The translations under genes were made by a program, and so were the position numbers. Below are positions 3,899 through 13,507 of a stretch of 34,959 nt of DNA, piece after piece. Within the stretch, counting starts at the first letter, position 1. Each line of letters opens with the position of its first letter. The notes beneath the pieces are model-generated. The model saw only the letters and a list, made by a program, of their open reading frames with translations, was not told where the DNA came from and did not search any database. The stretch comes from Acidobacteriaceae bacterium. GTDB taxonomy: Bacteria; Acidobacteriota; Terriglobia; Terriglobales; Acidobacteriaceae. The stretch spans positions 1 to 34,959 of the forward strand of contig PLSM01000094.1 in the NCBI GenBank assembly GCA_003165075.1, written 5' to 3'.

Positions 3899-5938
3899 CT
3901 ACTTCGCTCGCAGTTCTCCCGTGGGCAGAAAGGCCACACCTGCCACCTCGTCCCCTGAAGCCAGCACATCCCGCAGCCGTTCCGGATTGGCTCCGCTGCG
4001 TGCCGCTGCTTCCTTCACCAGCCTCAATGCCGCGGCCGGCGTGGTTCCGCCCGGCAGCCTGAATATCCACGGTACGTTGGTCGAAGTCAGAGCCTTGTCG
4101 TTGCTCAGGGCCACCACCGGCACAAAAGCCTTCAGCGCCAGTTGCTCGGCCAGGTGCGCCGCGTCGCGGTCCAGGGCCACGATGGCCAACGCGTGCTCGT
4201 CCATCAGCGCATGAACCAGCTGGGTTGAAGCCGCGCCCCAATTCTGGTCGCTGGCCACCGGCAGCAGTTTCCACTCCCGCCCTTTCAGCGGATGGGCTGC
4301 CAACTCCGCCTGCACCTCGTCCGAATTCGCCACTTTCTGCGCCTGCGGACCAAAGAGCACCACCCGTACCGCTCCCGGCGGTATATCCGGACGCTCGGGA
4401 CCGTGATACTCCACGCCATCTTCACCCACGCGCGCATAAGGTTCCTGCGATGCAGAAGACACAACCGGGTGCCCCAGGTCCCGATTCTGGGACCTGGGAA
4501 GGCTATCCCCCACCCCGAGCGCAATCGGAGCTTGCCCCCCAGCGGGTGGAGCAGGTGGCTTCTCCATCGTCGCCACCCGGTAGGTCACAGTTCCATCATG
4601 GACAGTGCCAAGGTACATAGGCGCCACGTTCTTCTGGTTGGGATCGAAGATCATATGCCCGGTCACGCCGTCGTACTGCTCAATGTCGGCCAGCGCATCG
4701 TGAATCCGCGCCCGATTCAGCCCTGCCTTGCAGATGGAGTCCAGCAGCGCATTCATCGCGTCATAAGCCAGAGACGCAAACTGCTCCGGCGGCTCATTGA
4801 AGCGTGCCGCGAAGCGTTGCTTGAACTCCAGCCAGCGCGGATCTTTCCGCGTCGGATCGTACGGGAACACGGCCTCGAATCCCTCCGCAGCCGGGCCGGC
4901 CTCGGCCAGCAGTTCGGGCCCCAGAGTGCGGTAGGAGCCGAACACGCGCTGCTTCATGCCCAGGGTGCGCATCTGCTTCAGAATGTTTGCCGCCGGAATC
5001 TCGTCGGTCCACAGCACGATAGCGTCGGCGCGCGACGATTGAATGATCTTCAGCTCCCGCGTAAAGTCCGTATCCCCGGGCAGGAACTTCTGTTCGATTA
5101 CTACCGGGTGGCCCAGCCGCCGCGCCGCATCTCGAAACTTCAGCACCCCAAACCGCCCATAGCGGCTGTTCACACGCAGCAGCGCAACGCGCTTCATTCC
5201 CAGTTCGCTGAAAATGTGCCGCGCCAGCGTCAGAGACTGTACCCGGTCGTCCTGCAGGTCGGTGAAGTACCACGGTATGTATGTTTCCGGAATGGTCGGA
5301 TCGGTGGAAGCCGAGTTCACAATGGGAATTTCGGCGCGCAAGGCCACGCGCAACATGATGTGCGTCGATTCGGAGCTGATGGAGCCAAAAATCGCCCAGT
5401 CCTGGTCGTCGTAAACCATCTTCACCGCTTCATTCGACGCTGAACCCCAGATGGTCGGGTCGGTGGGCCGTTCCTCGCCATACACCGTCTTGGCCTGCCA
5501 GTTGTCGTAGTCGTTGTGCAGCATCAGCTTGAAGGGTTTGCCCCCATAGCCGCCGCGCGCATTGGCCTCCTCCACCGCCACTTGCGCGCCATGCAACATG
5601 CGCAGTCCGAAAACCGATTCCGGATTGTGCTCGATGGGCCCAAAGAAGCCAATGCGCACCTCGGTCACGTTCTTCGGCTCCGGAAGGTCGCGCCCCGCCC
5701 CGGAATAAATATTCGGATGGACGTAATTCAGGTCGTAGGGCTTGGCGAATTTCTCATAAGGACTCAGGTCTGTTGGCTCGCCCGCGTACGGCGCCACCAC
5801 GCGGTCCTTCGGCGGTCCCGGCGGATGCGCGCCGCACTCGCAAACATGCGCATCCTTGCTCGGGACCTGTCCGGTAACGCTCGCAATGCCGCCGACGGCC
5901 CACAAGCACGCCGCCGCCAACAACCATCCCTTGCCCAT
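3899..5938 (-). CDS. Periplasmic binding protein of the branched-chain amino acid receptor type, with extra C-terminal lobe
   Basis: Secreted ligand-binding protein, 679 residues. A signal peptide (MGKGWLLAAACLWAVGGIAS) is followed by a short metal-site-like motif H31-V-C33-E-C35-G-A-H38. Residues about 93-455 form a full type 1 periplasmic binding domain (VRIGFFGPIEHNPESVFGLRMLHGAQVAVEEANARGG; IFGSISSESTH; VALLRVNSRYGRFG; FASLAYDAMNALL). A Pro/Ala-rich linker follows. About 515-679 (VRVVLFGPQ; AIVALDRDAAHLAEQLALKAFVPVVALSNDKALTSTNVPWIFRLP) resembles one more lobe of the same fold. The style resembles the binding proteins found beside PQQ-dependent dehydrogenases. The start is chosen by AAGGAG, 8 nt upstream, and the signal peptide. 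It lies 5 nt after the Rid-family gene and is last in the operon. No permease or ATPase genes are present, so sensing or scavenging is as likely as transport. The linker carries hairpin repeat copy 1. Confidence 0.8.
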   Translation of the reverse strand: MGKGWLLAAACLWAVGGIASVTGQVPSKDAHVCECGAHPPGPPKDRVVAPYAGEPTDLSPYEKFAKPYDLNYVHPNIYSGAGRDLPEPKNVTEVRIGFFGPIEHNPESVFGLRMLHGAQVAVEEANARGGYGGKPFKLMLHNDYDNWQAKTVYGEERPTDPTIWGSASNEAVKMVYDDQDWAIFGSISSESTHIMLRVALRAEIPIVNSASTDPTIPETYIPWYFTDLQDDRVQSLTLARHIFSELGMKRVALLRVNSRYGRFGVLKFRDAARRLGHPVVIEQKFLPGDTDFTRELKIIQSSRADAIVLWTDEIPAANILKQMRTLGMKQRVFGSYRTLGPELLAEAGPAAEGFEAVFPYDPTRKDPRWLEFKQRFAARFNEPPEQFASLAYDAMNALLDSICKAGLNRARIHDALADIEQYDGVTGHMIFDPNQKNVAPMYLGTVHDGTVTYRVATMEKPPAPPAGGQAPIALGVGDSLPRSQNRDLGHPVVSSASQEPYARVGEDGVEYHGPERPDIPPGAVRVVLFGPQAQKVANSDEVQAELAAHPLKGREWKLLPVASDQNWGAASTQLVHALMDEHALAIVALDRDAAHLAEQLALKAFVPVVALSNDKALTSTNVPWIFRLPGGTTPAAALRLVKEAAARSGANPERLRDVLASGDEVAGVAFLPTGELRAK
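4467..4500. repeat. Hairpin repeat family A, copy 1 (inside a gene)
   Basis: GGGTGCC flank, then CCCAGGTCCC - GATTCT - GGGACCTGGG: perfect 10-bp arms and a 6-nt loop (4473-4498). It lies in the binding-protein gene and is read through as PRSQNRDLGHPVV in the Pro/Ala-rich interdomain linker (about residues 480-490). The other copies are at 17901-17936 and 24779-24814. Confidence 0.85.
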
Positions 5939-5943
5939 TTGAA

Positions 5944-12581: not shown

Positions 12582-13507
12582 CCAACAGCCTCCAGGGTCC
12601 GTGCGCCGGCCGGCTCGCTATGCGCAAGCCTGCGCAGCGCCAAGTAGGGATCGAGCATTGCCATCATCTCGTCGAATCCGGCAAAGTCCAGCGACTGCTC
12701 GCCGTCGCTCCAAGCTGTGTTCGGGTCCGGATGCACCTCCACCAGCAGGCCGTCTGCATCCGCCGCTACCGCAATGCGCGCCAGCGCGGCCACCAGGTCA
12801 CGATGCCCCGCCGCGTGGCTGGGGTCGGCGATCACCGGGAGGTGCGAAATATGTTTGAGCAGTGCAATGGCAGTCACGTCGAAGGTGTTGCGCGTTGAAG
12901 TTTCAAAGGTGCGAATCCCGCGCTCGCAGAGAATGACGTTGGGATTGCCGTTGTCCAGAATCAACTGCGCCGAACGCAGCAGGTCGGCCACCGTGGCCAT
13001 CATGCCCCGCTTCAGCAGGATGGGCCGGCCCGACCGCGCCGCCGCTTCCAGTAGCGTGTAGTTCTCCATGCTGCGCGAGCCGATCTGCAGAATGTCGGCA
13101 TACTCGGCCACCATCGGTACGTCGCACTCCGACATCACTTCGGTCACAATGGCCAGCCCGCTCGACTCGCGGGCACGCGCCAGCATCTTCAGCCCTTCCA
13201 GCCCATGTCCTTGAAATGCATAAGGGGAACTGCGCGGCTTGAATGCACCGCCGCGAAGAATTCGCGCGCCTCCGCGGCGCACATGATCGGCGGTGACCAT
13301 CAGCTGGTACTCGGTCTCCACCGAGCACGGCCCAGCCATGGTGATAAACTCCCCGCCGCCGATGTCGAGATCCCTCACCCGCACAATGGTTCGCGGGCGT
13401 ATGGAACTCTTTAGCACATCGGGGGTCTCAGCAAAACGTTCTTGCCAGCTTTCGCGCACCCTCAGCGCTCCAATCCGGGGAAGCGTCAGACTATCGCGCC
13501 CACTCAT
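12578..13507 (-). CDS. aroF: 3-deoxy-7-phosphoheptulonate (DAHP) synthase, type I-beta, without regulatory domain
   Basis: Condenses phosphoenolpyruvate and erythrose 4-phosphate, the first step of the shikimate pathway, in the cytoplasm. From the ATG at 13507 it has 309 residues. Motifs: MAGPCSVE, RGGAFKPRSSPYAFQG (85-100), QIGSRSMENYTLL, LKRGM, CERGIRTFE, DPSHAAG and EVHPDPNTAWSDG. The metal ligands are Cys61, His231, Glu257 and Asp268. Their spacings (170, 26, 11) equal those of Cys102/His272/Glu298/Asp309 in the Thermotoga enzyme as I recall them, so this protein is about 41 residues shorter at the N-terminus. It therefore lacks most of the ferredoxin-like allosteric domain and has no chorismate mutase domain. 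The start is chosen by GGAGG 7 nt upstream; an in-frame GTG at 13558 has no such site. First gene of the seven-gene run, overlapping the next by ATGA. Confidence 0.92.
   Translation of the reverse strand: MSGRDSLTLPRIGALRVRESWQERFAETPDVLKSSIRPRTIVRVRDLDIGGGEFITMAGPCSVETEYQLMVTADHVRRGGARILRGGAFKPRSSPYAFQGHGLEGLKMLARARESSGLAIVTEVMSECDVPMVAEYADILQIGSRSMENYTLLEAAARSGRPILLKRGMMATVADLLRSAQLILDNGNPNVILCERGIRTFETSTRNTFDVTAIALLKHISHLPVIADPSHAAGHRDLVAALARIAVAADADGLLVEVHPDPNTAWSDGEQSLDFAGFDEMMAMLDPYLALRRLAHSEPAGARTLEAVG

What the first reader, a model, noticed from the sequence alone, without database searches (positions are those of the whole stretch)
3899..13507. Seven-gene overlapping operon joining a DAHP synthase to exported haem and propeller proteins
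Junctions in order are ATGA overlap, 1-nt gap, ATGA overlap, TAATG overlap, 18 nt and 5 nt. A cytoplasmic aromatic-pathway enzyme and a Rid protein are locked in translation with five exported proteins (HzsA-like one-haem protein, VCBS/ASPIC protein, propeller-di-haem cytochrome, propeller, binding protein). No named pathway known to me has this set. A periplasmic redox or cofactor-maturing module fed by aromatic metabolism is one hypothesis.
Basis: partly seen in the sequence, partly recalled or inferred. Interest (0 to 1): 0.75.

Follow-up and report, generated by a model that had tools for sequence, protein, structure and literature searches.

The report
Hydrazine-synthase-like operon with aromatic supply branch
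Soil acidobacteria share a seven-gene operon that encodes relatives of hydrazine synthase, the key haem enzyme of anammox bacteria, next to two cytoplasmic enzymes that likely make an aromatic compound for it, which suggests that this enzyme family has an undescribed second job outside anammox.

Summary
In detail: seven minus-strand genes with the stated junctions. The "HzsA-like" and "propeller-di-haem" proteins are together a relative of anammox hydrazine synthase (HZS): alpha (profile E 6e-37 to 5c2v_A; also the best PDB fold match) and a beta-gamma fusion (E 3e-69 to 5c2v_B, 2e-35 to 5c2v_C). Key HZS residues are replaced (alpha-Tyr591, gamma-His144 to Trp, gamma-Asp168); the third haem cysteine mostly persists. 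The order is not unique: 46 of 52 well-covered loci keep all seven genes. The "Rid" lacks the RidA arginine (71 of 72 rows) but carries a chorismatase-type Cys-x6-Glu (72 of 72). It occurs in 69 of 71 (class sample) and 14 of 14 (phylum sample) genomes with the HZS-like beta-gamma, mostly linked to it, and in several genomes beside a DAHP synthase on another contig. HZS homologues beside FG-GAP and binding proteins were published in 2025; DAHP synthase and Rid terms do not occur in that paper's main text. Best mechanism (unproven): a periplasmic haem complex served by a short DAHP synthase and a chorismatase-like Rid. Chemistry unknown; anammox-type hydrazine synthesis is unlikely. New variant of a known kind.

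The parts
12578..13507 (-). aroF: DAHP synthase, type I-beta core of 309 aa (a GTG start at 13558 is also possible)
   Evidence: PF00793 234 bits; TIGR01361 353.5 bits against cut-off 267.75; PDB relatives 1vs1, 3pg8; two other DAHP synthases of the genome carry an N-terminal PF18152 domain, which one search does not list for this one
11178..12581 (-). hydrazine-synthase alpha-like, exported by eye, one haem-c motif C425-VGC-H429
   Evidence: PF18582 60.9 bits; profile against 5c2v_A E 6e-37; AF2 model pLDDT 88, best Foldseek match 5c2v_A E 2e-21, TMq 0.73
9485..11176 (-). FG-GAP / ASPIC-UnbV (CRTAC1-type) protein
   Evidence: PF13517 171 bits, PF07593 82 bits
7569..9488 (-). hydrazine-synthase beta-gamma fusion-like: propeller plus MauG/CCP-type di-haem domain, C429xxC432H433 and C553xxC556H557
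   Evidence: NF052342 171 bits; profile against 5c2v_B E 2.6e-69 and 5c2v_C E 1.8e-35
6463..7569 (-). propeller (two-component-regulator propeller repeats)
   Evidence: PF07494; present in 51 of 52 covered loci
5944..6444 (-). Rid/YjgF protein with chorismatase-type Cys142-x6-Glu149 and Ser134 at the RidA arginine position
   Evidence: PF01042 67 bits; C-x6-E in 72/72 rows, S134 in 71/72 (71 distinct sequences); TIGR04444 matched by 18/18 scanned members, the window's far below its cut-off
3899..5938 (-). branched-chain-amino-acid-type substrate-binding protein; its second part resembles the second of two tandem binding-protein genes of other families
   Evidence: PF13458 164.7 bits; tblastn of parts q51-454 and about q491-649 against the tandem genes

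Best explanation
The operon encodes relatives of hydrazine synthase (a one-haem alpha subunit and a fused beta-gamma subunit) with an FG-GAP protein, a propeller and a solute-binding protein, all predicted to be exported, plus a DAHP synthase and a chorismatase-like Rid protein that likely make a chorismate-derived aromatic or cyclohexadiene acid which the periplasmic haem complex would use. Shown here: homology to all three HZS subunits, conservation of the gene set, and co-occurrence of the Rid with the haem complex. Inferred: (1) alpha and beta-gamma would assemble as in HZS, with beta-gamma's second haem exchanging electrons with a cytochrome c; (2) the gamma-I site, with CCP/MauG-type Trp471 and the HZS-type third cysteine Cys482, would carry the redox step, and the alpha haem a second step; (3) the short DAHP synthase, without the ferredoxin-like N-terminal domain of its paralogues, would push carbon into chorismate, and the Rid, probably a trimer using Cys142/Glu149, would divert chorismate; (4) the binding protein would hold the product or substrate in the periplasm. 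Steps 3 and 4 are the weakest.
For: HZS homology. Gamma site in 81 rows (window plus 80 loci) and 8 rows of other families: Trp in 81/81 and 8/8, Cys at the gamma-Cys165 place in 79/81 and 6/8, gamma-II His in 81/81 and 8/8 (its ninth extra row, L032, is the same genome stretch as L086). Gene order kept in 46/52. Rid in 69/71 HZS-like-bearing genomes of 399 in the class (15 of the other 328 have it; hypergeometric 1e-59) and 14/14 of 247 in the phylum (1e-17), neither corrected for relatedness; in the class sample 64 of the 69 have Rid and beta-gamma within 8 kb, so much of the signal is linkage. Rid sits beside a DAHP synthase on another contig than the beta-gamma, or in a genome without a beta-gamma match, in L161, L162, L168, L169, L170 and L198, and inside the cluster in other families (L187-L189). 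Nine acidobacterial chorismatase-like proteins all have C-x6-E (seven, L140 and L143), with PSFxR in six and SGTAS in four; in Nat-hyg5 the catalytic Glu325 and signature Cys318 have the same spacing (PMC7170507 passages). The genome has two other DAHP synthases, so this copy need not be the housekeeping one.
Against: The single-domain Rid lacks the N-terminal half of chorismatases, scores 33.7 bits against a cut-off of 325, and the rows shown by the structure searches are RidA-type proteins, not chorismatases. Its profile matches a RidA (2dyy, 56 bits) better than FkbO (36.6). aroF was not found in the stretches fetched for five f2-family clusters (L180-L183, L186); three loci (L073, L120, L126, one clade) lack both aroF and rid, and L102 and L109 hold only degraded aroF. 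The same Rid family also sits beside other genes with no HZS-like gene next to it: DUF1549/1553 and DUF1501 genes (L167, L184, L193), multihaem cytochromes (L172, L173). No exporter for an aromatic acid and no chorismate-consuming step other than the Rid was recognised. The binding protein's best PDB relatives are branched-chain-amino-acid types.
Confidence: 0.33

Rival explanations
1. Self-protection: the periplasmic haem complex releases a reactive product (peroxide, NO, hydroxylamine or a carbonyl), and the operon supplies a spare DAHP synthase and a Rid to keep cytoplasmic metabolism alive.
For: Both genes lack obvious export signals, are of duplicate or damage-control type, and accompany a CCP/MauG-like haem site. 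That DAHP synthase is a target of oxidants is recalled, not from a call.
Against: The Rid lacks the arginine needed for imine hydrolysis (PMC4433059 passages). The DAHP synthase core looks ordinary, with no sign of a resistant variant.
Confidence: 0.17
2. The Rid acts on another small metabolite (neither imine nor chorismate) needed by a wider class of exported haem and FG-GAP systems; the DAHP synthase is a frequent but separate passenger that raises aromatic flux.
For: The Rid family adjoins DUF1549/1553 plus DUF1501, multihaem cytochrome and PD40-TPR genes elsewhere, and can occur without aroF.
Against: Rid and aroF are adjacent in six fetched places away from a beta-gamma, which a passenger would not predict.
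Confidence: 0.3
3. The complex makes hydrazine or another N-N bond, like anammox HZS.
For: Three-subunit homology and the third haem cysteine.
Against: Tyr591 and gamma-His144/Asp168 equivalents are absent and there is one haem motif in alpha; the 2025 study drew the same conclusion for its homologues. An octahaem family was not found in the genome, but that search rang in no control either, so it is uninformative.
Confidence: 0.05
4. The cytoplasmic and exported genes share a locus only for shared regulation, without a metabolic link.
For: The binding protein, propeller and Rid show no direct biochemical tie, and in 64 of 69 class genomes the Rid is simply linked.
Against: Co-occurrence persists where unlinked: 5 of the 69 class genomes have no Rid within 8 kb of the beta-gamma, and in the phylum G156, G176, G203 and G153 have it far away or on another contig.
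Confidence: 0.15

Closest known systems
Anammox hydrazine synthase HZS alpha-beta-gamma (PDB 5c2v/5c2w)
   Same: All three subunits are matched; propeller-plus-middle domain alpha, propeller beta, di-haem gamma; third haem cysteine place kept in most; beta and gamma fused as reported for Scalindua japonica (PMC12758564)
   Different: No alpha-II haem motif; Tyr591, gamma-His144 and gamma-Asp168 equivalents replaced; alpha lies upstream of beta-gamma with an FG-GAP gene between; sits with aroF, rid, propeller and binding protein
HZS-homologue clusters, clades I-IV (Hagglund et al. 2025, PMC12758564)
   Same: Co-located alpha and fused beta-gamma, CRTAC1/FG-GAP neighbour, substrate-binding proteins (clade III), Trp for His144; by haem count (2), short alpha and gene order the window resembles their clade II
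   Different: Their main text does not contain DAHP, shikimate, RidA, YjgF, L-PSP, endoribonuclease, aldolase or chorismat; they report the third cysteine for clade I, here it is in 79/81; clade placement was not tested by a joint tree
Chorismatases FkbO/Hyg5/XanB2 (TIGR04444)
   Same: YjgF-type domain, Cys-x6-Glu, and in part PSFxR and SGTAS motifs
   Different: Half the length, far below the family cut-off, activity unknown
RidA/Rid imine deaminases
   Same: Fold and general profile
   Different: Catalytic arginine replaced by serine in 71/72 rows (about 10% of RidA proteins also have serine, PMC4433059 passage)
MauG / bacterial di-haem cytochrome c peroxidase
   Same: Di-haem domain (CCP_MauG) and the tryptophan that PMC12758564 calls important for CCP/MauG catalysis
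   Different: Fused behind an HZS-beta-type propeller and paired with an alpha-like subunit

Membership tests
Hydrazine synthase | Alpha subunit: propeller plus HZS middle domain with a haem motif | tested here: met
   PF18582; profile E 6e-37 over 26-313 and 322-419; best fold match
Hydrazine synthase | Beta and gamma subunits | tested here: met
   5c2v_B (13-350) and 5c2v_C (37-212, 251-312) matched by one fusion
Hydrazine synthase | Proximal tyrosine (Tyr591) four residues after the haem-motif histidine | tested here: not met
   The +4 residue is Glu in 60 and Ala in 6 of 66 orthologues; Glu433 in the window (alignment)
Hydrazine synthase | Second alpha haem (alpha-II) | tested here: not met
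   One CxxCH in 467 aa
Hydrazine synthase | Gamma-His144 and gamma-Asp168 | tested here: not met
   Trp in 81/81 and 8/8; Thr in 81/81 and Phe, Ala or Leu in 8/8 at the Asp168 place
Hydrazine synthase | Third haem cysteine gamma-Cys165 | tested here: met
   Cys in 79/81 and 6/8, the window included
Hydrazine synthase | NCBIfam equivalog cut-offs | tested here: not met
   55.8 against 800 (alpha), 171.2 against 1250 (beta-gamma fusion)
Hydrazine synthase | Makes hydrazine | not testable with these tools
   needs purified complex
Chorismatase (FkbO/Hyg5) | Catalytic Glu and CH-II Cys at spacing 7 | tested here: met
   C-x6-E in 72/72 rows; spacing from PMC7170507 passages
Chorismatase (FkbO/Hyg5) | Two-domain protein of about 310-345 aa over the TIGR04444 cut-off | tested here: not met
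   166 aa, 33.7 bits against 325
RidA imine deaminase | YjgF fold | tested here: met
   AF2 model pLDDT 81; RidA/RutC top matches
RidA imine deaminase | Catalytic Arg105 | tested here: not met
   Ser134 in 71/72 rows
DAHP synthase type I-beta | Family score and active-site motifs | tested here: met
   TIGR01361 353.5 against 267.75; KPRSSP, RGIRTFE, DPSH and EVHP blocks align with solved enzymes; that these are the active-site motifs is recalled
MauG/CCP di-haem | Two haem-c motifs and the catalytic tryptophan | tested here: met
   position equivalence as stated in PMC12758564

The most novel reading that the evidence does not exclude
A hydrazine-synthase-family enzyme outside anammox that runs on a chorismate-derived aromatic made by its own operon: the two-site haem machine would couple that aromatic (or an amine drawn from it) in the periplasm of soil bacteria, representing the ancestral chemistry from which anammox hydrazine synthesis was recruited.
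Probability: 0.13. Interest if true: 0.88.

Novelty: new variant of a known kind. Interest (0 to 1): 0.62.

Why it matters
Hydrazine synthase is described as unique to anammox bacteria (PMC12607021) and its origin is an open question (PMC12758564). Here a three-part relative is present in 71 of 399 sampled genomes of the window's class, counted by its beta-gamma part, with a small cytoplasmic enzyme (Rid) as a near-constant companion and a DAHP synthase as a frequent one. That gives a concrete, testable handle (rid and aroF knockouts, in vitro chorismate assay) on what the HZS fold does outside anammox, and it would change how hzs-like genes in soil metagenomes are read.

Tried and rejected
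Considered and set aside: true hydrazine synthesis (key residues absent); canonical imine deamination by the Rid (arginine absent); aroF as the genome's only DAHP synthase (one search finds four other PF00793 loci: L053 and L054 are DAHP synthases with a ferredoxin-like PF18152 domain, L055 is a KDO8P synthase, L052 was not classified). A strict rule that aroF and rid are lost together was rejected: three loci lacking both form one clade, and L102 keeps rid but only a degraded aroF. One origin of all module aroF copies was not supported: the Terriglobia copies form one group (62 rows, support 0.965), but L035/L037/L043 copies group with the PF18152-bearing paralogues. Chorismatases did not appear in the rows shown of either structure comparison of the Rid; that does not exclude them. 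The octahaem search rang nowhere, controls included, and says nothing. Paper searches: HZS plus DAHP/RidA/cytochrome, at least three of four terms (none); HZS plus CRTAC1 (only PMC12758564); HZS plus Acidobacteria terms; HZS_alpha. FkbO could not be aligned residue by residue because the tool shows only the best five alignments; acidobacterial chorismatase-like proteins were used instead.

Dropped rows and biases: of 80 loci, 28 with too little flank were left out of the order count. In one search the L139 frame picked was wrong; the chorismatase frames were chosen by the very motif then counted, so its 8/8 is void and is replaced (seven of nine matches, frames taken from the match coordinates; L140 and L143 fell into a wrong frame there and are read, where frames had been chosen by another motif). 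L032 and L086 are the same genome stretch, so it counts twice in the 72 Rid rows and in the aroF tree. In some searches and 73/74 only matches under E 1e-60 (beta-gamma) and 1e-20 (Rid) were counted; the two exceptions among 71 (G350, G454) are assemblies of about 730 and 610 contigs. The A2 and A3 profiles were built partly from genomes of the samples (such as G171 and G098), so those rows match by construction.
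Full report
WHAT IS THERE. Families: DAHP synthase; HZS_alpha protein with one CxxCH; FG-GAP/ASPIC protein; propeller plus di-haem protein; regulator-type propeller; Rid/YjgF; branched-chain-type binding protein. The held genome (95% complete) has a single PF18582 match, the one in the window.

THE HAEM PROTEINS ARE HYDRAZINE-SYNTHASE RELATIVES. By single sequence, alpha matches 5c2v_A (E 8e-9) and the di-haem protein matches 5c2v_B (E 5e-31) and 5c2v_C (E 3e-20). Profiles of orthologues extend this over most of beta and gamma and over the first two domains of alpha: alpha E 6e-37 (42 rows), beta E 2.6e-69 and gamma E 1.8e-35 (10 rows). 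The AF2 model of alpha (pLDDT 88) has HZS alpha as its best PDB match (E 2e-21, TMq 0.73), ahead of TolB propellers.

ACTIVE SITES. The gamma positions were mapped from the alignment with residue numbers from PMC12758564 (parts 1-4 of 9 of the full text and part 1 of 2 of the discussion read) and PMC12607021 (abstract, start of the introduction and passages). In 81 rows (window plus 80 loci) and 8 rows of other families: haem motifs and the gamma-II histidine in all; Trp for gamma-His144 in all; Cys for gamma-Cys165 in 79/81 and 6/8; no Asp at the gamma-Asp168 place (Thr in 81/81; Phe, Ala or Leu in 8/8) (leaving out its row L032, which repeats L086). In alpha, CxGCH is present in 66/66 orthologues read and the residue four after the His is Glu in 60 and Ala in 6, not Tyr. 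So the fold and haem layout are kept, the HZS-specific ligands are not, and the gamma site has the CCP/MauG-type tryptophan. PMC12758564 reports the same loss of key residues for its homologues.

CONSERVATION OF THE SET. A scan of one genome per species (84,980 by the tool's description) found 495 relatives of beta-gamma; the best 80 were kept, all Acidobacteriota by their titles. Of 52 with enough flank, 46 have all seven genes in order; presence: beta-gamma 52, ASPIC 51, propeller 51, binding protein 51, alpha 50, rid 48, aroF 47 (L109's aroF and alpha and L102's aroF are degraded remnants). Short or overlapping junctions recur. More distant families keep ASPIC/alpha/beta-gamma/propeller/binding protein with changed order. 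In three other families of the class (L187-L189) the order is alpha-ASPIC-beta-gamma-propeller-rid-aroF-binding protein; in L180-L183 (family f2) rid lies at one end of the cluster, and in L186 (f2) inside it, and aroF was not found in any of these five stretches.

THE RID IS THE MOST CONSTANT CYTOPLASMIC PARTNER. In 247 genomes of the phylum, 14 have beta-gamma (E <= 1e-60) and all 14 have the module-type Rid (E <= 1e-20), which occurs in 22 genomes. In 399 genomes of the class, 69 of 71 beta-gamma genomes have it against 15 of 328 others; the two exceptions (G350, G454) are fragmented assemblies. In 64 of the 69 the two lie within 8 kb, so much of the association is linkage; in five they do not. 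These counts ignore relatedness, though the 14 phylum genomes span nine families, and the two samples share genomes. Where the Rid lies elsewhere it adjoins a DAHP synthase in L161, L162, L168, L169, L170 and L198, and in other fetched places it does not (for example L160, L163, L167, L171-L173).

WHAT THE RID MAY BE. The RidA arginine is serine in 71/72 rows. PMC4433059 (abstract and other passages) reports that changing this arginine almost abolishes imine hydrolysis, that subfamilies Rid4-7 lack it, and that about 10% of RidA proteins have serine there. All 18 members of the Rid alignment hit the chorismatase model TIGR04444 (the window's at 33.7 bits against a cut-off of 325), and the profile matches FkbO at E 4e-8 and a RidA at E 5e-14. 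Nine acidobacterial chorismatase-like proteins all carry C-x6-E; PSFxR is in six and SGTAS in four of them. C-x6-E, the spacing of Cys318 and Glu325 in Nat-hyg5 (PMC7170507 passages), is in 72/72 module rows. In some genomes the Rid is a multi-domain protein matched by TIGR04444 over about two thirds of the model (L040, L162, L163). I read this as a chorismatase-like Rid; activity is unproven.

THE DAHP SYNTHASE. It scores over the family cut-off and aligns throughout with solved enzymes. The genome has five PF00793 loci: two DAHP synthases with a ferredoxin-like PF18152 domain (that this domain is regulatory is recalled), one KDO8P synthase, one not classified, and this short one without PF18152.

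MECHANISM. See Best explanation. The commitment is to a periplasmic HZS-type haem complex with a cytoplasmic chorismate branch; the structural part is near certain, the metabolic link moderate, the chemistry open.

NOVELTY. HZS homologues outside anammox, with CRTAC1 and binding proteins, are published (PMC12758564). Its main text has no occurrence of DAHP, shikimate, RidA, YjgF, L-PSP, endoribonuclease, aldolase or chorismat and none of "acidobacteri" (listing). The search for HZS with DAHP and RidA terms found no paper; some searches looked for HZS homologues more widely, and beyond PMC12758564 I opened only PMC12607021 among their hits. Hence: new variant of a known kind.

Noticed in passing
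13770-15179 (-) and 15176-18757 (-): An amidase and a 1193-aa TPR/FG-GAP/ASPIC protein overlap each other and lie just upstream of aroF; homologues are present in 33 and 31 of the 52 covered loci, so they may be a second part of the module.
   Followed up: partly
L066 (same assembly prefix as L079): A lone beta-gamma without alpha, preceded in frame by a domain with two CxxCH motifs and next to a small c-type cytochrome gene: beta-gamma may work without alpha.
   Followed up: no
L109 and L102: Decaying cluster copies: L109 keeps ASPIC, beta-gamma, propeller, rid and binding protein but only remnants of aroF and alpha; L102 has a degraded aroF.
   Followed up: partly
L168, L169, L163, L194: Rid (with aroF in L168 and L169) next to a PD40-propeller plus TPR protein, without an HZS-like cluster beside it.
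   Followed up: partly
L171, L191, L196, L197; L190 similar with one gene between: A second Rid context without HZS-like genes: beside a protein of about 250 aa, which in L171 matches 2OG-Fe(II) oxygenase families.
   Followed up: no
L033 and L042: HZS-like alpha genes divergent from a molybdenum hydroxylase gene set; in L033 Pfam confirms the Mo-binding and iron-sulfur subunits, in L042 this is by eye.
   Followed up: partly
3899-5938: The binding protein looks like a fusion of two tandem binding-protein genes of other families, the second part shortened.
   Followed up: partly
22263-24389: A Tle1-like phospholipase gene beside a lipoprotein-like gene, with lower GC3 (0.66) than most neighbours; possibly acquired.
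   Followed up: no
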